Part shown: positions 5,393 through 16,601 of the stretch, piece after piece | How positions within the stretch are numbered: position 1 is the stretch's first letter | Layout: the number at the start of each line of letters is the position of its first letter | Translations under genes and position numbers: made by a program | NCBI GenBank assembly: GCA_024103515.1 | Contig: JAGGIK010000020.1 | Location: forward strand, 1-32,353 | Reading direction: 5' to 3' | DNA from: Snodgrassella sp. | GTDB lineage: Bacteria; Pseudomonadota; Gammaproteobacteria; Burkholderiales; Neisseriaceae | DNA: 32,353 nt | The notes under the pieces: generated by a model | Databases searched by the model: none | What the model saw: only the letters and a program-made list of their open reading frames with translations | Told to the model about the DNA's origin: nothing

Positions 5393-5546
5393 TTAAATAA
5401 ACCTACATCAGCCAATCGGCAGTAATTCAAATCCTTGCTACCCTGCATTCTTTATTGTTATTACCGGCAAAAGTAGATAACTTTTAGCCGCTGGCCTTCA
5501 GCCTTTGACCCTACACAACTGTAATTGAACCAGTACAGTTCAGCTT

Positions 5547-6338
5547 TTAATCTAACCAGATGGCACTTAGCATGCGCCCCGTTTTACCGTCACGCCGGTA
5601 AGAAAAATAACGATCACGCTGCAATACCGTGCACTCTGTACCACCATATACCTGATGTACACCTGCATCGGCCAAAGCCAATCGTGCCAATGCATAGATA
5701 TCGGCCAGATAGTGGTCATGACCAATATCAATAAATGCCACTTGTGCCTTGGGGTGGTGTAAACAGAATGCCTCCCATACTTCAACCCCAACTTCAAAGG
5801 CGTCCGGACCAATAGCCGGTCCTAGATAAGCGATGATTTCCAGGGGGTTAACCTGCATGGCTGCAACAGTATTCTGCAATACTCCTCCAGCCAGTCCACG
5901 CCAGCCGGCATGTGCTGCTGCTACTACCGTACCAGCGCGATCACATAGTAGCACCGGCAGACAATCTGCAGTCATGATAGCACAGGCCACTGCATCTCCT
6001 TCGTGACTGAAACTAGCGTCCGCTGACAGCGGATTTCCAGTCTCCATAGCGGCTAAGGCAAGGCGTGCTGCCACCACTTGCGTACTATGCACCTGTTGCA
6101 GATAGGCCAATGGTTGCTCAATCCGTTGCTGCACCAACGCACGATTGTGCAGCACAGCCTGAGCATCATCCCCTACATGTGTTCCGACATTAAGCGAAGC
6201 AAAAGGTGAGCAGCTAACACCGCCATGACGCGTTGACAGTAAAGTATGGACATTAGCCGGAGCCGGCCAGTCTGCGGTAAAGAAACTATTGCTATCCTGC
6301 CTCAGTCCCAATACCAGATTCATATCCCATTGTGTCAT
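5547..6338 (-). CDS. pgeF: Multicopper-polyphenol-oxidase (laccase)-fold protein, peptidoglycan editing factor PgeF family
   Basis: YfiH/PgeF-family enzyme; family members have purine nucleoside phosphorylase, adenosine deaminase or laccase-like activity, and the E. coli protein prevents misincorporation of L-Ser into peptidoglycan. The 263-residue product has the zinc ligands in the expected motifs: QVHS near residue 86, TADCLPVLLCD near 131 and AAHAGWRGL near 148, then GPAIGPDAFEVG. AAGGAT lies ahead of the ATG. It begins 11 bases after the rluD stop, the order also found in Neisseria, so the two are probably cotranscribed. Which of the family's activities applies cannot be told from sequence. 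Confidence 0.93.
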   Translation of the reverse strand: MTQWDMNLVLGLRQDSNSFFTADWPAPANVHTLLSTRHGGVSCSPFASLNVGTHVGDDAQAVLHNRALVQQRIEQPLAYLQQVHSTQVVAARLALAAMETGNPLSADASFSHEGDAVACAIMTADCLPVLLCDRAGTVVAAAHAGWRGLAGGVLQNTVAAMQVNPLEIIAYLGPAIGPDAFEVGVEVWEAFCLHHPKAQVAFIDIGHDHYLADIYALARLALADAGVHQVYGGTECTVLQRDRYFSYRRDGKTGRMLSAIWLD

Positions 6339-6349
6339 CAGCCATATCC

Positions 6350-7477
6350 TTAATCACGCACATAAATGACATCAACATCATAGTCATCATCATCCCAATT
6401 TTCATCCTCTGCATTGGCACCGAAATGGTGCTGCCATTGATCTTCATGTCTGAGCGATGAACACATACCAGCCTGTAACCTTAATACAGACAAAAGATGA
6501 TAAATATCCGCTGGCAACGGCGCCTCAAATTGAACGGTTTCTTCTGTCGAGGGATGAACAAAGCTCAAACGGTAGGCATGTAGCGCCTGCCGTGCCATTG
6601 TCTTGATCGCTGTTTTCACTTCTGGGCTGGCCGGATGACGGGGATTGCCATACTGCGGATCACCAGCCAATGGGTGGCCGGCAGCTTTCATATGCACACG
6701 AATCTGATGGGTACGACCGGTTTCCAGCTGACACTCAATATAGCTAAAATCCGCATAGCGTTCTAAAACTTTGACATGAGTAATGGCTTCCTTACCGCCA
6801 AAAGGTACGACTGCCATACGGGTACGGTTATGCGGATCACGACCAATTAAAGTTTCAATCTTGCCGTCAAAAGGCACCACGCCATCTGCAACGGCACGGT
6901 AAGTGCGTTTAACCGTTCGTTGTTGTAACTGGTTAACCAGATGATGCTGTGCTTGTAAGGTTTTAGCCACCACCAGCAAACCGCTGGTGTCTTTGTCCAG
7001 ACGGTGCACAATACCTGCACGCGGCACCTGCGCCAGTGACGGACAATAGGCCAAAAGACCATTCAATAATGTCCCCTGCCAGTTGCCTGCTGCCGGATGA
7101 ACCACCAGTCCTGCCGGCTTATTCAGAACCAGTACACTATCATCTTCATAAATCATGTCTAAGGGCATATCTTCAGGAGTAAATGCTTGCTGCATTTCAT
7201 CAGCCTGAATGACGACACTAATATTTTCGCCGCCAATTAATTTAAATTTAGGTACCACTACTGCATTATTTACGGTAACATGGCCTTCTTTTATCCAGCC
7301 AGTCAAGCGACTGCGAGAGTAATCTGGCATTAATTTGACTAAGGCAACATCCAGTCGCAAGCCAGCCAGTTCATTGGGTACAATCCAATTTTTGCAACTT
7401 TCTACAGAATGATCTGCCCCAAATGGCAAATCATCGTTATAATCGTCATCATTCTTTAACAAAGAAGTGTCTTTCAT
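6350..7477 (-). CDS. rluD: 23S rRNA pseudouridine(1911/1915/1917) synthase RluD
   Basis: Converts three uridines in helix 69 of 23S rRNA to pseudouridine. The 375-residue product has an S4-like RNA-binding domain (about residues 35-95, LDVALVKLMPDYSRSRLTGW) and the RluA-family catalytic motif GIVHRLDKDTSGLLVVAK with the catalytic Asp, followed by GRTHQIRVH. The acidic C-terminus (DDDYDVDVIYV) is as in Neisseria. The start MKDTSLLKNDDDY at 7477 matches the neisserial N-terminus in length and character. It has no visible Shine-Dalgarno, and an in-frame GTG at 7564 would lie inside bamD. The ATG shares the CATG at 7475-7478 with the divergent bamD start, so its upstream control sequence must lie within bamD. 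Confidence 0.95.
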   Translation of the reverse strand: MKDTSLLKNDDDYNDDLPFGADHSVESCKNWIVPNELAGLRLDVALVKLMPDYSRSRLTGWIKEGHVTVNNAVVVPKFKLIGGENISVVIQADEMQQAFTPEDMPLDMIYEDDSVLVLNKPAGLVVHPAAGNWQGTLLNGLLAYCPSLAQVPRAGIVHRLDKDTSGLLVVAKTLQAQHHLVNQLQQRTVKRTYRAVADGVVPFDGKIETLIGRDPHNRTRMAVVPFGGKEAITHVKVLERYADFSYIECQLETGRTHQIRVHMKAAGHPLAGDPQYGNPRHPASPEVKTAIKTMARQALHAYRLSFVHPSTEETVQFEAPLPADIYHLLSVLRLQAGMCSSLRHEDQWQHHFGANAEDENWDDDDYDVDVIYVRD

Positions 7478-9125: not shown

Positions 9126-9503
9126 TCAATAACAATGATGTATTTCAGCGGTACAACCTCTTTGCAATAAGCGTATTTCAATTCGTGCACCGACTAACTC
9201 CTGTTGAAATACACCGATGGCTGATTGCATCGACAAACGCCCACACATAAAAATGTCGACTGCTGCATAGTGATACTCAGGCCAGGTATGAATACTCATA
9301 TGAGACTCTGCTAGCAATAATACACCCGTAACACCACTGTTTCCTCCAAAAGTGTGAAAGTGACTGGTCAAAATATGCGCCTGTGCTGCTTGTGCAGCTT
9401 CATAAAGCAATCCTTTGATCGCCTGTTCATCTTTCAACCAAGCATGGTCCAGCAGATAAATCTCTAGTAAACAATGCTGCCCTATTGCATTTTCATTTTG
9501 CAT
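9126..9503 (-). CDS. speD: S-adenosylmethionine decarboxylase proenzyme, SpeD class 1B-like
   Basis: Pyruvoyl enzyme that decarboxylates AdoMet to decarboxylated AdoMet, the aminopropyl donor for polyamine synthesis. The 125-residue product is the short prokaryotic form. The self-cleavage motif is clear: AESHMSIHTWPEY with cleavage expected between Glu66 and Ser67, His72 for processing, and the catalytic Cys87 in DIFMCG. Its ATG overlaps the stop of the upstream DUF4178 gene (TAATG), so translation is coupled. It is the last gene of the leftward operon, facing away from the membrane aminopropyltransferase gene on the other side of the divergent region. The conserved motifs are complete, so activity is likely. 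The dedicated role within this locus is inferred from context. Confidence 0.93.
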   Translation of the reverse strand: MQNENAIGQHCLLEIYLLDHAWLKDEQAIKGLLYEAAQAAQAHILTSHFHTFGGNSGVTGVLLLAESHMSIHTWPEYHYAAVDIFMCGRLSMQSAIGVFQQELVGARIEIRLLQRGCTAEIHHCY

Positions 9504-11326
9504 TATTTATGCCAGTGACTATTGTAGTGGTGATAGCCAGAAGAACCAGAGACATTGCTTGTTTTGTAAACCTTCCAGTCGATACTAGTGAAGATAATCA
9601 CAATGATAAAAGCATAATAAGGAAACAACCTTATTCTAATTAAAAACGATTTAAATTTGCTGATATAATTCAAATACAAACATTGCCAAGCCAAATAAGA
9701 ACAAATAACGATTATGCCAATGGTAATCGTTTCATCTTCATCATTCAAACAAGCTAAAATAAATAAAGGCGCATTCATAAGTGTAAAGAGCATCATCCAT
9801 ATATCTGATTCATACGGGGAATAACTCATACTTTGCCGCCACCATTTATATAGCAATTTTTTATTGCGAAAATCTTCTGCGGTAATACTCTGATGTTCTT
9901 GAACAATATTATCGGCATTTTCTTTTGTCATTGGTTTTGCATGGATAACGGTTTTTTTATCCCTTTGAAACCATGTGGCAACCGCTGTCGCTGAAACTTC
10001 GCTGATCACAGACCAAGTTTGTTCTTGTGGATTTAATGTGGTAGACAGTTTATGTTTAGGGGTACCAAAATCTCGATAATAATTGATATCATCAGCCTTT
10101 ACTTGCCAATAAAAAGCACCGGCTGCGTACAATACCTGACCACCGTAATCATACAAACAGCGTAAATCTTCATCTCCAAATCCTGCTGGTGTGATGATGC
10201 TTGGATGATTAATTTTTGGCCAAATATCTAAAGTGCTAGCCAGCGACCACTGGTTGTCCTCCTGTTCAATCAACCATAAAAAACCTTTTTTAGGTGAATA
10301 CAATAAATATTCTGTCCAGACTGAAGAGAAATCATCCTCATTTATTTCATCTTCACTAAATGATGGAGTAATAGGTAGTTTCAATTCTTTCAAGGCGTCT
10401 TCGGGTGGTATTTCCTTGACGACTACCGCACCTAATACTAGCCAGTTATGTCTACCAATCCATGCCTTACTACCTGGTTTTATGGTTAGATTTTGTTTCT
10501 GCTGATCACGTTTTTTTTCGCTTTTCAGTAACTGAATTTTATCCTGATTGAGGCTAACTGAACTTTGACAATGCTGACAGACAATATAGGTAGCTAAAGC
10601 GCTAACCCATTGGATATTGCCACCACAGGATGGGCATTTTCCTGCTTGCATCGTGCCTTTAATTCGTCCTGATTGTGCACGAATCTGATCCGCTGTCCGG
10701 GTGTGCTGTAATTGTAATGCGTTTAGCTTGACACCTTCGCCAAAAAATACTTTTTGTTGGGTAGCCGAATCCGCATTCTCTATGGTCATAAAATATTTGC
10801 CCGAGCGCAGGTCTATGCTGTTAACCTTTTGCTGTCGTGACAATGGGAAGGGCAGCTCGCCTTCATAATTGCCTCGCTTTATTTGGCGAATATCGCTAAT
10901 AATCCAATTACGACCTTTATAAACCGGCTGAGTATGACCACACTGCAATGTATTAAGCTTTATGGTTTCTCCAATTTGTTCTCGCGTGAAAACAAAACGG
11001 TCACCTGCTTCGGACAACCACCCACTCTTTCCATCTGCAAAAAGTGCATGCCATTCGTTCCACATTCCCGCTTCATAATGAACCTGAATGCGACCAATTA
11101 ATACGAATGGTTTTCTATTCCATACTCCGGTTGTCCCAATCTGTAAAGGCGATAAATCATCTACAACTGCAGAGCAACGAGAGTCGAGAATTAATTGATC
11201 GTTATTGATCAGTAATACTGAATGACAGTATTGACAGACTGCTGTCAGCGAAGTAGCTGAATGTACTCCAATTTCAGCGCCACAACTGGGACAATTAGCA
11301 TGAAAAAACAGAGACTGATTATCCAT
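9503..11326 (-). CDS. Membrane protein with two zinc ribbons and two DUF4178 domains
   Basis: Function unknown. The 607-residue product begins with a zinc ribbon (C12-x2-C15, C31-x2-C34), followed by a beta-rich DUF4178-like domain (about 55-120). A second zinc ribbon (C231-x2-C234, C250-x2-C253) precedes a second DUF4178-like domain (about 278-370). The C-terminus has three predicted membrane segments (about 510-527, 533-553, 567-584) and ends in a Gly/Ser/His-rich tail. DUF4178 proteins are repeatedly found beside SPFH, DUF350 and AdoMet-decarboxylase genes, as I remember. It lies nine bases after the SPFH gene, and its stop overlaps the speD start by one base. A cytoplasmic ribbon-plus-DUF4178 part anchored by the C-terminal helices is my reading. 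Confidence 0.85.
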   Translation of the reverse strand: MDNQSLFFHANCPSCGAEIGVHSATSLTAVCQYCHSVLLINNDQLILDSRCSAVVDDLSPLQIGTTGVWNRKPFVLIGRIQVHYEAGMWNEWHALFADGKSGWLSEAGDRFVFTREQIGETIKLNTLQCGHTQPVYKGRNWIISDIRQIKRGNYEGELPFPLSRQQKVNSIDLRSGKYFMTIENADSATQQKVFFGEGVKLNALQLQHTRTADQIRAQSGRIKGTMQAGKCPSCGGNIQWVSALATYIVCQHCQSSVSLNQDKIQLLKSEKKRDQQKQNLTIKPGSKAWIGRHNWLVLGAVVVKEIPPEDALKELKLPITPSFSEDEINEDDFSSVWTEYLLYSPKKGFLWLIEQEDNQWSLASTLDIWPKINHPSIITPAGFGDEDLRCLYDYGGQVLYAAGAFYWQVKADDINYYRDFGTPKHKLSTTLNPQEQTWSVISEVSATAVATWFQRDKKTVIHAKPMTKENADNIVQEHQSITAEDFRNKKLLYKWWRQSMSYSPYESDIWMMLFTLMNAPLFILACLNDEDETITIGIIVICSYLAWQCLYLNYISKFKSFLIRIRLFPYYAFIIVIIFTSIDWKVYKTSNVSGSSGYHHYNSHWHK

Positions 11327-11335
11327 ATTTTCTGA

Positions 11336-12370
11336 TTAACCGGTAATTTTCTTAATGATTTCTGCTTTAGCGGCGTCATAATCATTCTGGCTGATCAGAT
11401 TCTGCTCCAACATACTTTTTAATTGGGCTAATTTAACTGTGTGATCCTCAGCAGTTAAGGTAGCTTGAGGCTGGACTTGGGCAAAATTAGGGTTTAAGGC
11501 TGCATTCATGCTGCCAGCAATACCCATCCCAGCAGCCAAACCAGCGCCAATACCGGCAATGCCACCTTCGTTTTCGGCCGCTTTGGGTATGGCTTGCGCA
11601 GTCTGATATTGAGTATAACGTCCAAGATCGCCGACAATACCCATTCCGATTCTTTCTTCCATGTGTTTTTGCAGATTTTCAGGAAGAGTAATGCTTTCTA
11701 CGGTAAAGGATTCCAATTGCAACCCTAATGCTGCGAATGCTGGTTGCAACAATTTAGTCATCTGTTCTGATAACTTAATCTGATTGGCCGCCATATCTAT
11801 AAAAGAAATATCCGCTGTACCGAAGGCGGTAGCCAAATTAGTAACAGCCAAATTTCTGATTTGTTCTTCCAGCTGTTCGGAACGATACTCTTCACAGACA
11901 CCTGTTACCTGACGAAAGAACATGGCTGGGTCCGCAATGCGAAAAGAATACATACCGTATGAACGCACGCTCACTACACCAAAATCCTGATCGCGTATGG
12001 TTACTGGCTGTGCCGTTCCCCATCGTTTAGACAACTGCTGACGCATGTTGAAGAAGTAGACATCAGATTTAAATGGTGATTCAAATAATTTTGACCAATT
12101 TTTTAGATTGGTGAGTAAAGGCAAGTTCTGAGTAGTCAGGCTATGTGTTCCCACGCCAAATAAATCGGCAATGGAACCTTCGTCCACAAACAATGCGGAT
12201 TGTGAATCACGCACAATCAGTGCTGCACCATTCTGGATTTCCTGATCACGTAATGGAAAACGCCACATCAGCACATTAGATTCTGGATTTTCCCATTGGA
12301 TGACATCAATAAATTGTTTCTTGATAAAACCGCCCAAACCTTTACTACCAAAAATTGAATCTAATATCAT
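11336..12370 (-). CDS. SPFH/Band-7 domain protein with SHOCT tail (YdjI-like)
   Basis: The 344-residue product resembles Bacillus YdjI and the Band_7_1 family (virion-core-protein-like SPFH proteins). Residues about 20-250 form the SPFH region, with VIQWENPESNVLMWRFP near the start and the typical LGLQLESFTVESITLPENL. A Gly/Ala-rich linker (about 268-288) follows, then a C-terminal SHOCT-type helical hairpin (about 312-344, KLAQLKSMLEQNLISQNDYD). No membrane helix is evident; SPFH proteins usually associate with membranes peripherally and oligomerise into microdomains. The start has GGAG eight bases upstream. A 270-bp gap from DUF350, with a palindrome, could hold its own promoter. It probably acts as the scaffold of this locus (inference). 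Confidence 0.9.
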   Translation of the reverse strand: MILDSIFGSKGLGGFIKKQFIDVIQWENPESNVLMWRFPLRDQEIQNGAALIVRDSQSALFVDEGSIADLFGVGTHSLTTQNLPLLTNLKNWSKLFESPFKSDVYFFNMRQQLSKRWGTAQPVTIRDQDFGVVSVRSYGMYSFRIADPAMFFRQVTGVCEEYRSEQLEEQIRNLAVTNLATAFGTADISFIDMAANQIKLSEQMTKLLQPAFAALGLQLESFTVESITLPENLQKHMEERIGMGIVGDLGRYTQYQTAQAIPKAAENEGGIAGIGAGLAAGMGIAGSMNAALNPNFAQVQPQATLTAEDHTVKLAQLKSMLEQNLISQNDYDAAKAEIIKKITG

Positions 12371-12524
12371 AAATTTTCTCCGATTTTGCCGTACACTGCC
12401 GATTACCCAATTTATGCAATTTAAGTAAATCTAAAATAACTAAACACTTTTTAGGTGCTGAACATTGATCTCGTCTGTCATTTTATCCTAAAAGCTTTGA
12501 GTGCCAGTGTTTCACCATAAAATA

Positions 12525-12548
12525 TTGATAATTTGATAGGTCTATCAA
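12525..12548. promoter_or_regulatory. Operator-like palindrome upstream of the SPFH gene
   Basis: A perfect dyad TTGATAG-GT-CTATCAA at 12533-12548, with a third TTGATA at 12525-12530. Read on the minus strand, the TTGATA of the right arm could be a -35 with a poor TATTTT -10 about 18 bases on, so a bound protein would cover the promoter of the SPFH-DUF4178-speD segment. No regulator is encoded nearby. Confidence 0.35.
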
Positions 12549-12640
12549 TAAACTTTTATATCACTTCCACATTTTCGATGTAGTCAGCTAAAAAACTGAA
12601 TTTGATCAATATGCACATTTTCTCTATTGAATATCTGATT

Positions 12641-13039
12641 TTAACTTAATGAAGCTGCATTTAAAATTCCAATAGAAACAGAAAAACCAAAAAACAAAAT
12701 ACCAACAGCCACATTGTTATTTTTCAATTCCTGATTGGCCTTAGGAATTAATAATGTGGTGATAAAATAGACCACAACTTGAATGACAGCTGCGCCTATA
12801 CCCCAGATAACAAAATCAAGCATACTGGCTGAATGGAGCATGCTTGAAATCAGAGTGATACTATAGCCGATCATAGTGCCTATTAAGGATAAAGCACAGG
12901 CAGCATTACCTTGTCGGATTAAACTGAGTTCGGATACTGGAGTAATCTTCAGATAAACTGAAATATAGGTGGCCATCATCACCAGACCGACAGCAAAAAA
13001 TTTTAAATACAGCAGGTATTGCCATAAATGTGTAGTCAT
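12641..13039 (-). CDS. DUF350 (YjfL-type) four-helix membrane protein
   Basis: The 132-residue product is almost entirely membrane-embedded, with four predicted helices (about 7-27, 45-67, 72-97, 107-130) and polar residues at the inner ends. It fits DUF350/YjfL in length, topology and the internal pattern of helix pairs. Function is unknown; family members occur in envelope-stress gene clusters in many bacteria. It is the first gene of the leftward set, and the next gene starts 270 bases away. The ATG at 13039 is preceded by GAGAG about 11 bases upstream, and that sequence lies in a small hairpin (13051-13066), which could hide the ribosome binding site. Confidence 0.85.
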   Translation of the reverse strand: MTTHLWQYLLYLKFFAVGLVMMATYISVYLKITPVSELSLIRQGNAACALSLIGTMIGYSITLISSMLHSASMLDFVIWGIGAAVIQVVVYFITTLLIPKANQELKNNNVAVGILFFGFSVSIGILNAASLS

Positions 13040-13460
13040 GTAGTCAAATCTCTCATAATAATGAGATTGGTATTTTTACCCCATCACATTTTCAACAATT
13101 GCAAAGAGTGTCTGATGTTGAAAAGTTAATGACAGAACGGTATAGCAAAATAATTTCAATTATAACAATATATCGGTTAATTTTAGTAAGACGATTAACT
13201 AAGCTGCAAGAAAATTTGTGCTTGAGCTAGGCTAACATAGCCATCAGATCAGCATCAATGGCTTAATCAATATCTTTCATACAGGTAATAATCCAAATAA
13301 ATAGGTTAAAAGGTTAAATTTCGCAGACGGTTCAGAATGAACATTTTATACAGGCTATAAGATCATATGGGTTACACTTTGAGTAAGTATATTAACACAA
13401 TATGAGTATTTATTAATATAATGAATTATTTTGCCATTATTGATTTTTAAGAGTTGAGCA
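13040..13460. promoter_or_regulatory. Divergent regulatory region between the two arms of the polyamine/membrane locus
   Basis: 421 bases separate the DUF350 start from the aminopropyltransferase start, long for divergent promoters. Visible elements: a hairpin TCTCAT-AATA-ATGAGA (13051-13066) overlapping the DUF350 Shine-Dalgarno; a minus-strand TATAAT (13164-13159); a plus-strand TATAAT (13417-13422), 39 bases before the GTG start; and two mutually exclusive hairpins, GGCTA/TAGCC (13230-13242) and AGCCAT/ATGGCT (13239-13263). Neither -10 has a good -35 partner, suggesting activator dependence. No open reading frame of note. Confidence 0.45.
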
Positions 13461-14969
13461 GTGAATCCAGCATTAATCATATCGGTGTTTATCGTAGCCA
13501 GTTGTGGATTGGCTTATGAATTAATTATGGCCGCTTTGGCCAGTTATTTGCTTGGTGATTCCATTCTGCAATTTTCTTCTATTATCGGCCTATATATGTT
13601 TGCGATGGGTATCGGTGCCCATTTGACCCGCTATATCAAAGATGAAGATACTTTAAGCCGCTTTATTGAGATTGAAATACTGGTAGGGGTGACTGGGGGT
13701 ATTTCTGCATTATTGTTATTTGTCTTGTTCGGGTTTTCGGCTGCTCCGTTCCGCACAATATTGTATGCACTCGTCGTGATTGTCGGGATGGTTACTGGAA
13801 TGGAATTGCCTTTAGTGATGCGGGTACTGAATCTGCGTCAAGTCGAATTTAAGGAAGTGGTAAGCCGGGTATTGACCTTTGATTATCTGGGGGCACTGGC
13901 CGTTTCTTTATTGTTTCCGCTAATTTTGGCTCCGCGCCTTGGAATGGCGCGTAGTGCGTTACTTTTCGGAATCTTGAATACAGTCGTGGCTTTGCTTACT
14001 GCCCGCCTGTTTAAATCCAGTTTACGAAAATATGGCCGCTTACGATTGCGCGGTGGTCTGGTGCTGTTTTTCTTGCTTGGTTTATTCGTCTATGCCAATC
14101 TGATCACCAGCAAAGCTGAACAGCGCTATTTTGGCGATCCGGTCATTTTTCAAACTGCATCACCCTATCAGCGACTGGCCATAACTAAATGGCACGATGA
14201 TACTCGTCTGTTTATCAATGGAAATCTGCAATTTTCATCTGTAGATGAAGCCCGTTACCATGAAGCATTGGTATTACCGGTGATGGAGCAAAATCCAAAT
14301 GCAAAAAATATTTTGGTTTTGGGTGGTGGAGATGGACTAGCGGCACGCGAAATCTTAAAATATCCGCAGGTTGAAAGAATTACGCTGGTTGATCTGGATG
14401 CAGCCATGACTGAGGTTTTTCGCCATTCAGCCGAGCTACGCCGCTTGAATGATAATTCTCTGAATCATCCAAAAATGGAGATTATCAACGCTGATGCTGC
14501 TCAATGGTTAGAAAAAAATCAGCAGAAATATGATGTGATAATTATTGATTTTCCCGATCCGTCTAATTTCTCACTGGGTAAACTGTATTCTGTGCCCATG
14601 TACCGCATGGTTGCTCGACATTTGAATTCACAGGGCAATATGGTTGTTCAATCGACCTCTCCCTATTTTGCGCCGCGCGCTTACTGGTGTATTGCTGAAA
14701 CATTGGAAGCTGCTGGCTTGAGAATTCTGCCTTATCATGTCTACGTTCCTTCTTTCGGGGAATGGGGATATGTAATGGCCAATGTAGATGGGCGGTTTAA
14801 AATTCCTGAACACTATCGTGTTGCCACCCGCTATCTGGATACAGAAAGTACCAAAGCCATGTTTTCTTTCCCCAAAGATATGGCTCGTTTGCCTGTTGAA
14901 CCAAATTACTTGAATACCCAGAAACTAGTAGAATATTTTGAAGCCGATTGGCGCATCGTTATGCGGTAA
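13461..14969 (+). CDS. Membrane-embedded spermidine-synthase-like aminopropyltransferase
   Basis: The 502-residue product has about seven predicted membrane helices in residues 4-216, followed by a spermidine-synthase-type Rossmann domain. Donor-site motifs are present: SPYQRLAIT, QFSSVDEARYHEALV (the DExxYHE region), GGGDGLAARE at 288-297, VDLD and NADA. The catalytic-base loop reads IDFPDPSNFSLGKLYS, with Asp363 in place of the first Asp of the usual D-S-T-D-P. The enzyme should bind decarboxylated AdoMet and transfer an aminopropyl group. The acceptor is unknown and may be membrane-associated. Translation starts at GTG, since a stop lies two codons upstream in frame. The FAD oxidase gene follows after nine bases. 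Soluble SpeE lacks the membrane domain. Confidence 0.88.
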   Translation: MNPALIISVFIVASCGLAYELIMAALASYLLGDSILQFSSIIGLYMFAMGIGAHLTRYIKDEDTLSRFIEIEILVGVTGGISALLLFVLFGFSAAPFRTILYALVVIVGMVTGMELPLVMRVLNLRQVEFKEVVSRVLTFDYLGALAVSLLFPLILAPRLGMARSALLFGILNTVVALLTARLFKSSLRKYGRLRLRGGLVLFFLLGLFVYANLITSKAEQRYFGDPVIFQTASPYQRLAITKWHDDTRLFINGNLQFSSVDEARYHEALVLPVMEQNPNAKNILVLGGGDGLAAREILKYPQVERITLVDLDAAMTEVFRHSAELRRLNDNSLNHPKMEIINADAAQWLEKNQQKYDVIIIDFPDPSNFSLGKLYSVPMYRMVARHLNSQGNMVVQSTSPYFAPRAYWCIAETLEAAGLRILPYHVYVPSFGEWGYVMANVDGRFKIPEHYRVATRYLDTESTKAMFSFPKDMARLPVEPNYLNTQKLVEYFEADWRIVMR

Positions 14970-14978
14970 AGCAGATCT

Positions 14979-16601
14979 ATGAAATTTAGCCGTCGTCGTT
15001 TTCTCACCCATGCTTTAGGTACCAGTTTAGTAGGTCTGACGGGTTATACCAGCTTTAGGCAATTTGTCCCCTCATTACCTGAAATTAACATCGATTTTCC
15101 GGGAAAAAATTTAGGTCATGCCCTGCGCAGAGCGAGTATAACTTTGCCAAAAAATATACCTACTATTCACACCAATATTGCCATTATTGGCAGTGGTGCT
15201 GCCGCTTTAACGGTCGCTTGGCGATTGTCTAGAGAAGGCAGAAATGACTATATGCTTTTAGAAGGGCCTGAACATAATGGCAATAATCGGGGAGAAATAC
15301 AATATGGGATACCTTATCCTACCGGTGCGCACTATCTGCCACTTCCTTCAGTTGAATCCACTCATATTCAGCAATTGCTGACTGATTTAAAGCTTTATCA
15401 CAATGGTGGTTATGATGAACTGGCAATGATACAGATTCCCAGTCAACGTCTGTTTTATCAACAGCATTGGCAAGAAGGTTTACTACCAGAAAATGATTTG
15501 GACAGTAAACGGTTTTTTCGATTTGTTCATCAGACCAGTAATCTGCGTGGTCAGGATGCAAAACGTTTGTTTGCGATTCCTTTAGTGTCGTCAAGCGACG
15601 ATAGTCAATGGCGCATGCTGGAAAAAATCACCTTCGCTCAATGGCTACAACAACATGGATACCGTTCAACAACTTTACTTTGGTATCTAGATTATTGTTG
15701 CCGCGATGATTACGGCCAGGGCATTAATCAGGTATCGGCATGGGCAGGTTTGCATTATTTTTGCGCCCGGGGCAATCAACAGTCTGAGCACGGCACAGTA
15801 CTATCTTGGCCAGACGGATTAAATGAACTTTCCCGAAGGATGCGCCAATTTTGTCAACTACAACCAGCACAACATTGGCCAACATCTGTTCAGCAACAAC
15901 TGCCGATCGCTTTAAATGCATCGGCACTGTCGATTAACGAACATGATACGGGTGTACGTATTCTGATGCAGACGGCACATGGTGAGTGTTATTGGCTTGA
16001 AGCAAACCACGCTGTTTGCGCCATGCCCTTATATATCGCTGCTTATGTGGTCAAAAATATCGCCCAGTATGGATTTGATCCGACTAAACACATGCCGGCA
16101 TATGCACCATGGATTATTGGTAATTTTTTAATGCGTGGCTTACCACCAGAAGTTTCTGGTGTACCGTTGTCTTGGGATAATGTGCTATATCAAGGTAAAG
16201 GCTTGGGCTATGTAGTCGCTACTCATCAGCAGATCAGGCAAGGCCCTCCGGCTTATACTTCTTTTACCACTTATACGGCTTTGAATCATGATACGCCGAC
16301 TAATATACGTCGCTGGATGTTGTCAGCATCGCCTGCAGAAATTTATGCGCAGGTAGCAACAGAATTGGAGAATATTTACGGGGTAAAACTGCGATCACAG
16401 GTTTTACAAGCGCGTTTAACTTTACGTGGTCACGCGATGGCTGTACCGCAACCGGGTTATTTAAGTAATCAAGGACTCTTGGTACTACGTAATCATCACA
16501 GCCGTTTACACTTTGCTCACAGTGATTTATCTGGGTATTCAATTTTTGAAGAAGCAAGCTACTGGGGCATGCAGGCTGCTGAACACATATTGCGTTTTTA
16601 G
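14979..16601 (+). CDS. Tat-signal FAD-dependent amine-oxidase-like protein
   Basis: The 540-residue product begins with a twin-arginine signal (SRRRFLTHALGTSLVGL), so it is probably exported folded to the periplasm or kept as a membrane anchor. An FAD Rossmann motif follows (NIAIIGSGAAALTVAWRL, G71-x-G73-x-x-A76) with acidic Glu95 for the ribose. The C-terminus SDLSGYSIFEEASYWGMQAA has the layout of the flavin-contacting end of the amine oxidase/phytoene desaturase superfamily. The third glycine of the dinucleotide motif is Ala, which is tolerated in the superfamily. It lies nine bases after the aminopropyltransferase gene, so a polyamine or aminopropylated substrate is suggested by context only. 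No strong Shine-Dalgarno is seen. Confidence 0.85.
   Translation: MKFSRRRFLTHALGTSLVGLTGYTSFRQFVPSLPEINIDFPGKNLGHALRRASITLPKNIPTIHTNIAIIGSGAAALTVAWRLSREGRNDYMLLEGPEHNGNNRGEIQYGIPYPTGAHYLPLPSVESTHIQQLLTDLKLYHNGGYDELAMIQIPSQRLFYQQHWQEGLLPENDLDSKRFFRFVHQTSNLRGQDAKRLFAIPLVSSSDDSQWRMLEKITFAQWLQQHGYRSTTLLWYLDYCCRDDYGQGINQVSAWAGLHYFCARGNQQSEHGTVLSWPDGLNELSRRMRQFCQLQPAQHWPTSVQQQLPIALNASALSINEHDTGVRILMQTAHGECYWLEANHAVCAMPLYIAAYVVKNIAQYGFDPTKHMPAYAPWIIGNFLMRGLPPEVSGVPLSWDNVLYQGKGLGYVVATHQQIRQGPPAYTSFTTYTALNHDTPTNIRRWMLSASPAEIYAQVATELENIYGVKLRSQVLQARLTLRGHAMAVPQPGYLSNQGLLVLRNHHSRLHFAHSDLSGYSIFEEASYWGMQAAEHILRF

What the first reader, a model, noticed from the sequence alone, without database searches (positions are those of the whole stretch)
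9126..16601. Divergent polyamine-plus-membrane-scaffold locus: SpeD, DUF4178, SPFH-SHOCT, DUF350 | membrane aminopropyltransferase, Tat flavo-amine oxidase
Six genes in two divergent arms combine an aminopropyl donor enzyme, a membrane-bound aminopropyltransferase, an exported FAD oxidase and three membrane/scaffold proteins. SpeD is coupled to the DUF4178 gene (TAATG), and the latter is nine bases from the SPFH gene, so these are cotranslated partners. From memory, related sets occur near PspA-type envelope-stress genes; no PspA or regulator is present here. I infer a pathway that puts aminopropyl groups on a membrane-linked acceptor at an SPFH platform and processes the product oxidatively outside. 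The acceptor is unknown.
Basis: partly seen in the sequence, partly recalled or inferred. Interest (0 to 1): 0.85.

Follow-up and report, generated by a model that had tools for sequence, protein, structure and literature searches.

The report
Membrane polyamine enzymes with lysine-ended tail
A bee-gut bacterium carries a known but unexplained set of six genes for putting small amine groups onto an unknown target, and comparison with about a hundred related gene clusters points to a likely target: the last amino acid, a lysine wherever such a tail was found, of a short protein tail predicted to stick out of the inner membrane.

Summary
The operon kind is known: Ravi et al. 2024 describe DUF4178/DUF350/7TM-spermine-synthase operons, including a PspA-free variant with band-7/SHOCT, SpeD and a polyamine oxidase. 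The association is real: in 25 family genomes SpeD, DUF4178, DUF350, membrane SpeE and the oxidase occur in the same 16 and are missing from the same 9, even where scattered. The 12 Snodgrassella genomes with the locus have no PF01276 decarboxylase and one PF02784 protein each (LysA in the window's genome). New here: a seventh, unannotated element. The DUF4178 protein ends in a tail (…HWHK) that in most relatives is a separate 46-110 aa membrane peptide, and in some loci, PspA-type ones included, the end of a larger, mostly lipoprotein-like protein. It ends in lysine in 85 of 85 DUF4178 loci (68 of 73 rule-based picks; the rest by inspection), against 66 of 1089 background open frames. Charge distribution puts the SpeE catalytic domain outside. 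Best reading: the system aminopropylates this lysine in the periplasm and the exported oxidase acts on the product. No step is shown experimentally. The lipid/SPFH-platform acceptor is unsupported.

The parts
9126..9503 (-). SpeD, S-adenosylmethionine decarboxylase (class 1b type, keeps ESHxxIHTWPE)
   Evidence: PF02675 1.1e-32; TIGR03330 above cut-off; aligned to AdoMetDC structures
9503..11326 (-). DUF4178 protein (two DUF4178 stretches, CxxC pairs) with three C-terminal hydrophobic segments and the tail fused on
   Evidence: PF13785; hydrophobic segments and tail
9506..9580 (-). C-terminal tail DWKVYKTSNVSGSSGYHHYNSHWHK: proposed acceptor; counterpart of the separate small membrane peptide of relatives
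   Evidence: Sequence; last three residues WHK identical in 12 of 12 Snodgrassella proteins while the 40 columns before them average 0.56 conservation against 0.71 for the whole protein; counterparts
11336..12370 (-). SPFH/band-7 protein with a weak SHOCT match
   Evidence: PF13421 6.7e-72; SHOCT 18.8 bits, below cut-off
12641..13039 (-). DUF350 membrane protein
   Evidence: PF03994 2e-33
13040..13460 (.). divergent intergenic region between the two arms
13461..14969 (+). Membrane aminopropyltransferase: seven hydrophobic segments (about residues 1-213) then a spermidine-synthase domain (about 229-475)
   Evidence: PF01564; PRK03612; hydropathy and charge; donor-site and catalytic motifs invariant in 60 sequences
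14979..16601 (+). Tat-type exported Rossmann (FAD-type) oxidoreductase, presumed polyamine/amine oxidase
   Evidence: SRRRFL at N-terminus; PF13450; RR motif in 47 of 54 scored family members

Best explanation
The locus encodes an extracytoplasmic protein-modification system. SpeD makes decarboxylated AdoMet in the cytoplasm. The seven-TM aminopropyltransferase, whose catalytic domain is predicted to face the periplasm, transfers aminopropyl groups from it to the side chain of the C-terminal lysine of a membrane-anchored, exported Gly/Ser/His-rich tail. The lysine side chain is a butylamine and so resembles half of putrescine, the usual acceptor. In Snodgrassella the tail is fused to the DUF4178 protein; elsewhere it is a separate small membrane peptide or the end of a larger, mostly lipoprotein-like protein. 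The Tat-exported flavoprotein then oxidises the aminopropyl-lysine, perhaps to an aldehyde that can cross-link. SPFH, DUF350 and DUF4178 would hold and regulate the assembly at the inner membrane. Shown here by computation: the gene set, its co-distribution, the constant C-terminal lysine, the intact catalytic motifs, the scarcity of putrescine-forming enzymes in Snodgrassella. Inferred: topology, how the donor reaches the outside, the transfer to lysine, the oxidation, the role of the scaffolds.
For: C-terminal lysine in all 85 de-duplicated loci with DUF4178 (13 fused, 70 as an adjacent peptide, 2 beside speD in the same genome); 68 of the 73 rule-based picks end in K, the others settled by inspection. 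Also in 10 of 10 further class-wide loci, fetched as 10 of the 18 long SpeE matches listed; in 7 of the 10 the lysine ends a larger protein, 6 of these with a lipoprotein-like signal and none with a Pfam family above its cut-off; and in Ensifer and Alteromonas. Background: 66 of 1089 other open frames of 120 aa or more end in K, 8 in GK/HK. Lys codons are AAA 40, AAG 28, and 44 of 68 peptides show neither the ATGA nor the TAATG overlap; 47 of 68 tails hold no other lysine. SpeE-domain motifs invariant in 60 sequences, all at least 50% identical to the window's. K/R after TM2, TM4, TM6: 2.9, 3.9, 3.6 per protein; in the other loops 0, 1.0, 1.4: N-in, catalytic domain out. Fused forms have three hydrophobic segments (window, L091) or one (L127) between DUF4178 and tail by a crude count, which puts the tail outside. 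Oxidase carries a Tat motif in 47 of 54 scored. The same 16 of 25 family genomes hold all five parts searched. Precedent: E. coli YgiC and YjfC are annotated as peptide-spermidine ligases (title of Pederick et al. 2023 seen) beside DUF1190 proteins with Ser/Gly-rich tails ending in GG and, for yjf, DUF350 and PspA-family genes.
Against: A periplasmic catalytic domain needs decarboxylated AdoMet outside, and no exporter for it is known to me; the seven-TM part as a transporter is a guess. The lysine could be needed for another reason. 16 of the 80 named SpeE loci show no DUF4178 and no such tail in the stretch held, several of them on short contigs. A haloarchaeal membrane SpeE without SpeD nearby has no lysine-ended neighbour among the three checked. 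A second, soluble SpeE-like protein (PRK04457) is present in Snodgrassella G005, and lower-scoring PF01564 hits that may be its orthologues occur in all 25 family genomes, so decarboxylated AdoMet might also be used elsewhere. The oxidase lacks an amine-oxidase family match, and 8 of the 10 class-wide loci (L128-L135) show no oxidase in the stretch held.
Confidence: 0.5

Rival explanations
1. The tail with its C-terminal lysine is a binding or sensing element (for example contacting lipids, peptidoglycan or the oxidase), while the aminopropyl group goes to a lipid or small molecule at the SPFH platform.
For: SPFH and DUF350 genes accompany the set in most loci; published proposals speak of aminopropylation of other substrates (PMC11237479).
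Against: Nothing in the loci points to a lipid acceptor; the tail keeps one constant residue across fused, small-peptide and larger-protein forms.
Confidence: 0.25
2. The tail is aminopropylated, but in the cytoplasm before export, by a SpeE domain that faces inward; the seven-TM part only anchors the enzyme near the translocon.
For: Donor is made in the cytoplasm; spermidine synthases are cytosolic (general knowledge). Hydropathy-based topology can be wrong.
Against: Regular positive charge in the three alternate loops; lipoprotein and TM-anchored tails end up outside.
Confidence: 0.13
3. Ordinary polyamine synthesis: SpeD and membrane SpeE make spermidine from imported putrescine and the oxidase degrades polyamines outside.
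For: Family names; PRK03612 is called polyamine aminopropyltransferase; catalytic motifs kept.
Against: No PF01276 enzyme in the 12 locus-bearing Snodgrassella genomes and only one PF02784 protein each, LysA in G000; constant tie to DUF4178, DUF350 and tail; Li et al. 2019 report, as I recall its abstract, that such fusions do not replace spermidine synthase (paper not held).
Confidence: 0.07
4. The C-terminal lysine is the direct substrate of the oxidase (lysyl-oxidase-like), and SpeE acts on something else.
For: The oxidase looks exported and shares the locus with the tail in most DUF4178 loci.
Against: Lysine-ended tails persist in loci with no oxidase in the stretch held (L128-L135, L042-L044). 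The membrane SpeE is present in these, but by selection: the loci were found through it.
Confidence: 0.05

Closest known systems
PspA-free band-7/SHOCT + AdoMet decarboxylase + polyamine oxidase operons and DUF4178/DUF350/7TM-spermine-synthase operons (Ravi et al. 2024, PMC11237479; passages read)
   Same: Same gene families, same lack of PspA at the locus, same proposed link of polyamine chemistry and membrane; [quoted passage not shown]
   Different: The passages read do not mention a lysine-ended tail ('lysine' does not occur in the main text held) or its fusion to DUF4178; supplements not seen; they propose polyamine sensing or aminopropylation of unnamed substrates
AdoMetDC with MFS-SpdSyn fusion and DUF350 (Li et al. 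2019, Biochem J 476:2579; not held, recalled)
   Same: SpeD plus membrane SpdSyn plus DUF350; acceptor other than putrescine inferred there
   Different: Acceptor left unknown, as far as I recall; text not seen
E. coli YgiBC and yjfIJKLMC: peptide-spermidine ligases YgiC/YjfC with DUF1190 proteins (Pederick et al. 2023; only the title seen in reference lists, plus RefSeq annotation)
   Same: Anchored protein with a Ser/Gly-rich tail beside a polyamine-handling enzyme; DUF350 and a PspA-family gene in the yjf operon
   Different: The ligase uses ready-made spermidine; tails end in GG, not lysine; no SpeD or membrane SpeE annotated in the stretches seen
Hypusine and silaffin lysines (recalled)
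   Same: Lysine side chains extended with polyamine-type groups
   Different: Other enzymes, other organisms, internal lysines

Membership tests
PspA-free band-7/SHOCT polyamine operon of Ravi et al. 2024 | band-7 protein with C-terminal 2TM and SHOCT in place of the CesT/Tir-PspA dyad | tested here: inconclusive
   Band_7_1 6.7e-72; SHOCT only 18.8 of 27 bits; two TM segments not tested
PspA-free band-7/SHOCT polyamine operon of Ravi et al. 2024 | AdoMet decarboxylase | tested here: met
   TIGR03330 122.6 bits, cut-off 75.65
PspA-free band-7/SHOCT polyamine operon of Ravi et al. 2024 | polyamine oxidase | tested here: inconclusive
   Exported Rossmann protein; no amine-oxidase family match
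PspA-free band-7/SHOCT polyamine operon of Ravi et al. 2024 | 7TM-spermine synthase fusion, DUF350, DUF4178 | tested here: met
Bacterial AdoMetDC class 1b | AdoMet decarboxylase activity (not ornithine/arginine decarboxylase) | not testable with these tools
   Sequence motifs and model score fit; activity unknown
Aminopropyltransferases | donor-site and catalytic motifs (GGGDG, D363xxD366, QxxxxDExxYHE) | tested here: met
   Invariant in the 60 aligned sequences (positions chosen by me from recalled motifs); aligned to solved aminopropyltransferases
Flavin amine oxidases (Pfam amino-oxidase type) | match to a curated amine-oxidase family | tested here: not met
   Only PF13450 matched at E 0.01
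E. coli-type peptide-spermidine ligase systems | ATP-grasp GspS-like ligase at the locus | tested here: not met
   None among the six proteins scanned
Protein-lysine aminopropylation system (proposed) | aminopropyl group on the C-terminal lysine of the tail | not testable with these tools
   Needs mass spectrometry

The most novel reading that the evidence does not exclude
A widespread, undescribed post-translational modification: extracytoplasmic aminopropylation of the C-terminal lysine of a membrane-anchored tail by a seven-TM aminopropyltransferase that works on the periplasmic side, followed by oxidation by a Tat-exported flavoprotein; a second, independent bacterial way to polyaminate exported protein tails beside the E. 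coli peptide-spermidine ligases.
Probability: 0.42. Interest if true: 0.92.

Novelty: new variant of a known kind. Interest (0 to 1): 0.8.

Why it matters
The acceptor of the membrane aminopropyltransferases that accompany SpeD and DUF350 is an open question (unnamed 'other substrates' in PMC11237479). The constant C-terminal lysine turns it into a one-residue, one-mass test (+57.058 Da). If true, it would be a new protein modification in several bacterial phyla, a new use of decarboxylated AdoMet, and a link between polyamine chemistry and PspA/SPFH membrane maintenance, in a bee-gut symbiont among others.

Tried and rejected
Start-codon overlap as the cause of the terminal lysine: judged unlikely, because both Lys codons are used and 44 of 68 peptides show neither the ATGA nor the TAATG overlap; other kinds of overlap were not checked. 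A described family for the tail-bearing proteins: none above its Pfam cut-off for 7 small peptides and the Alteromonas lipoprotein (best for a small peptide DUF4766, 16.5 of 27 bits) nor for the 9 tail proteins other than the DUF4178 fusion of L126-L135, and no NCBIfam match for 5 small peptides. SpeD as an ornithine or arginine decarboxylase: not excluded by motif, since the passages read gave no usable residue key, but the SpeD model scores well. Structure prediction of the membrane enzyme: not available, so topology rests on hydropathy and charge. Actinobacterial loci (DUF4247 type) were not examined; one haloarchaeal locus was, without a tail. Two PF01564 copies per genome: in G005 the second is a soluble SpeE-like protein, left open. 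I first called the Alteromonas locus and L128 PspA-type; a Pfam scan shows TelA there, and PspA_IM30 only in L133-L135 of the proteins scanned; text mended. Literature: one search listed 1 unrelated paper, one search listed 20 of 33 (none read), one search found none for six aminopropyl-lysine/protein phrases; Li et al. 2019 and Pederick et al. 2023 were not readable here, so prior mention there cannot be excluded. One search used a wrong family accession (PgaD) and bears only on genome size.

How the tail counts were made: L046 and L050 were dropped as duplicates of L013 and L016; L001-L010 are short pieces of genomes already counted and were left out. The blind rule (nearest same-strand ORF of 40-130 aa with a hydrophobic N-terminal stretch after the last DUF4178) gave a pick in 73 of 85 loci, 68 ending in K. 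The five others: L011, L015, L016, L091 carry the tail fused to DUF4178 and the pick was an out-of-frame ORF; in L125 a spurious frame was nearer than the peptide ending FGGK. Of the 12 without a pick, 9 are Snodgrassella fusions, L102 has a peptide ending TGK missed by the rule, and L026 and L028 have it beside speD in the same genome. These last reassignments were made by looking for the tail, not blindly; the tails of L126-L135 were also read from gene lists by eye, three of them (L126, L127, L130) after a second, targeted look. Of 18 long SpeE matches outside the window's genome listed, I fetched 10. The 82 loci with both DUF4178 and SpeE fall into 20 single-linkage clusters at 70% SpeE identity, so they are not independent events. 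The background is open frames, some of which may not be genes.
Full report
What was checked. The six ORFs are at the stated coordinates with the stated families, TAATG overlap and 9-base gap. SpeD is a clear AdoMet decarboxylase by model score; the membrane enzyme is PRK03612, with a PF01564 domain after seven hydrophobic segments. The oxidase is a Tat-type protein with a Rossmann motif, but no curated amine-oxidase family matched it, so its substrate class is a presumption. The window lies in contig C21 of a 2.05 Mb, 86% complete genome.

Is the gene set a unit? Across 25 genomes of the family, DUF4178, SpeD, high-scoring membrane SpeE, DUF350 and the oxidase are each present in the same 16 and absent from the same 9. 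SPFH was not searched genome-wide; it lies beside the others in the loci read. In G016 the parts sit in five separate places of one chromosome, in G014 the oxidase is far from the rest, and G020 and G023 are partly dispersed; so co-retention is not just linkage. The counts are not corrected for relatedness, and 12 of the 16 are one genus. In the 16 order-level genomes the picture is looser: three (G026, G028, G037) hold all five parts, G036 has a DUF350 without DUF4178 or SpeD, G031 a sub-threshold DUF350, and G039 has a SpeD-SpeE soluble fusion without the rest. The 12 locus-bearing Snodgrassella genomes have no PF01276 decarboxylase and one PF02784 protein each, which in G000 is LysA (not identified in the other 11). 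Other putrescine routes and import are not excluded.

What is already known. Ravi et al. 2024 (PMC11237479, passages read) describe operons with DUF4178, DUF350 and a 7TM-spermine synthase, and a PspA-free variant with band-7/SHOCT, AdoMet decarboxylase and polyamine oxidase. They cite Li et al. 2019 for a polyamine-independent role of AdoMet decarboxylase (not held). So the locus is a member of a described operon class whose acceptor was unnamed.

The new element. In order-level relatives a tiny ORF sits next to DUF4178, mostly before speD: one hydrophobic segment and a Gly/Ser-rich tail ending in HK. In Snodgrassella the same element forms the C-terminus of the DUF4178 protein (window...GYHHYNSHWHK). 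I tested this over 85 loci with DUF4178 (two duplicates dropped): 13 fused (12 Snodgrassella, 1 Psychrobacter), 70 as an adjacent ORF, 2 beside speD of the same genome; all end in lysine. The blind rule alone gave 68 of 73; the rest needed inspection, as told in Tried and rejected. Loci come from Proteobacteria, Acidobacteria, Bacteroidota and Gemmatimonadota. The residue before the lysine was H in 57, G in 10 and V in 1 of the 68. Among 1089 other open frames of the loci 66 end in K and 8 in GK or HK. In partner families terminal K is uncommon: SpeD 5 of 79, oxidase 8 of 75, and not among the eight commonest residues printed for SPFH, DUF350 or SpeE. Lysine codons are 40 AAA and 28 AAG, 44 of 68 without ATGA or TAATG overlap, and 47 of 68 tails have no other lysine. 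In the 12 Snodgrassella proteins the last three residues are invariant although the 40 columns before them are less conserved than the rest of the protein.

The same ending occurs in loci of other builds. Of 18 long SpeE matches in a search of 274 genomes of the class I fetched 10; each has a protein next to the membrane SpeE or DUF350 that ends in GK or HK. Seven are larger proteins (L129-L135), six of them with a lipoprotein-like signal (all but L134); L126 and L128 are small peptides and L127 is a further DUF4178 fusion. L133, L134 and L135 hold PspA_IM30 genes, L133 also DUF2170; L128 and the Alteromonas locus hold TelA genes, L132 an ion-channel gene. The Alteromonas locus has a lipoprotein ending SSGK and Ensifer a peptide ending ESGK. 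Against: 16 of the 80 named loci have neither DUF4178 nor such a tail in the stretch held, and a haloarchaeal locus showed none in three neighbours.

Topology. In 60 membrane SpeE sequences K/R concentrate in the loops after TM2, TM4 and TM6 (2.9, 3.9, 3.6 per protein) and are scarce in the others (0, 1.0, 1.4). That puts the N-terminus inside and, with seven segments, the catalytic domain outside. The fused tails follow three hydrophobic segments in the window protein and L091 and one C-terminal segment in L127, and lipoprotein tails are outside by nature; 47 of 54 scored oxidases carry a twin-arginine motif (21 more oxidase frames were not scored because my Rossmann-motif pattern failed on them). 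Acceptor, enzyme and oxidase would thus share the periplasmic face. The weak point is the donor, which is made in the cytoplasm.

Mechanism. The SpeE domain keeps the donor-site and catalytic motifs in 60 of 60 sequences, all at least 50% identical to the window's. A lysine side chain ends in a butylamine, like putrescine, so transfer to it needs no new chemistry. E. coli offers a parallel: YgiC and YjfC are annotated as peptide-spermidine ligases (title of Pederick et al. 2023 seen), and the DUF1190 proteins beside them have Ser/Gly-rich tails ending in GG, in the yjf case next to DUF350 and a PspA-family protein. I infer two ways to reach a polyamine-bearing exported tail: ligation of spermidine to a terminal glycine, or aminopropylation of a terminal lysine. 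Phrase searches for protein or lysine aminopropylation in the open library found no paper (wider searches listed nothing on it by title); closed papers were not seen.

Verdict. Observation confirmed; operon kind known; unit supported; lipid/SPFH acceptor unsupported; a specific, conserved and testable acceptor candidate found.

Noticed in passing
G039 (order-level relative), L036 about 5508-6740: A 410 aa open frame matches both SpeD and spermidine synthase: a soluble SpeD-SpeE fusion in a genome without DUF4178, DUF350 or the oxidase.
   Followed up: no
Snodgrassella G005, L139 620-1453: A soluble SpeE-like protein named polyamine aminopropyltransferase (PRK04457); lower-scoring PF01564 hits that may be its orthologues occur in all 25 family genomes, including the 9 without SpeD, so the name is doubtful.
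   Followed up: partly
E. coli K-12, L137 88-726 and L138 745-1416: DUF1190 proteins YjfM and YgiB both end in a Ser/Gly-rich tail with terminal GG beside their peptide-spermidine ligases.
   Followed up: partly
G012 (Snodgrassella): This genome has PF01276 matches and a second, SpeA-sized PF02784 frame and lacks the locus, while the 12 with the locus lack both. G011 lacks the locus and these decarboxylases alike.
   Followed up: no
L108 6437-9910: Solitalea locus holds two DUF4178 and two DUF350 copies in alternation.
   Followed up: no
L128 6333-7517 and L044 11536-12642: TelA (toxic anion resistance) genes take the place of PspA in two related loci with lysine-ended tails.
   Followed up: no
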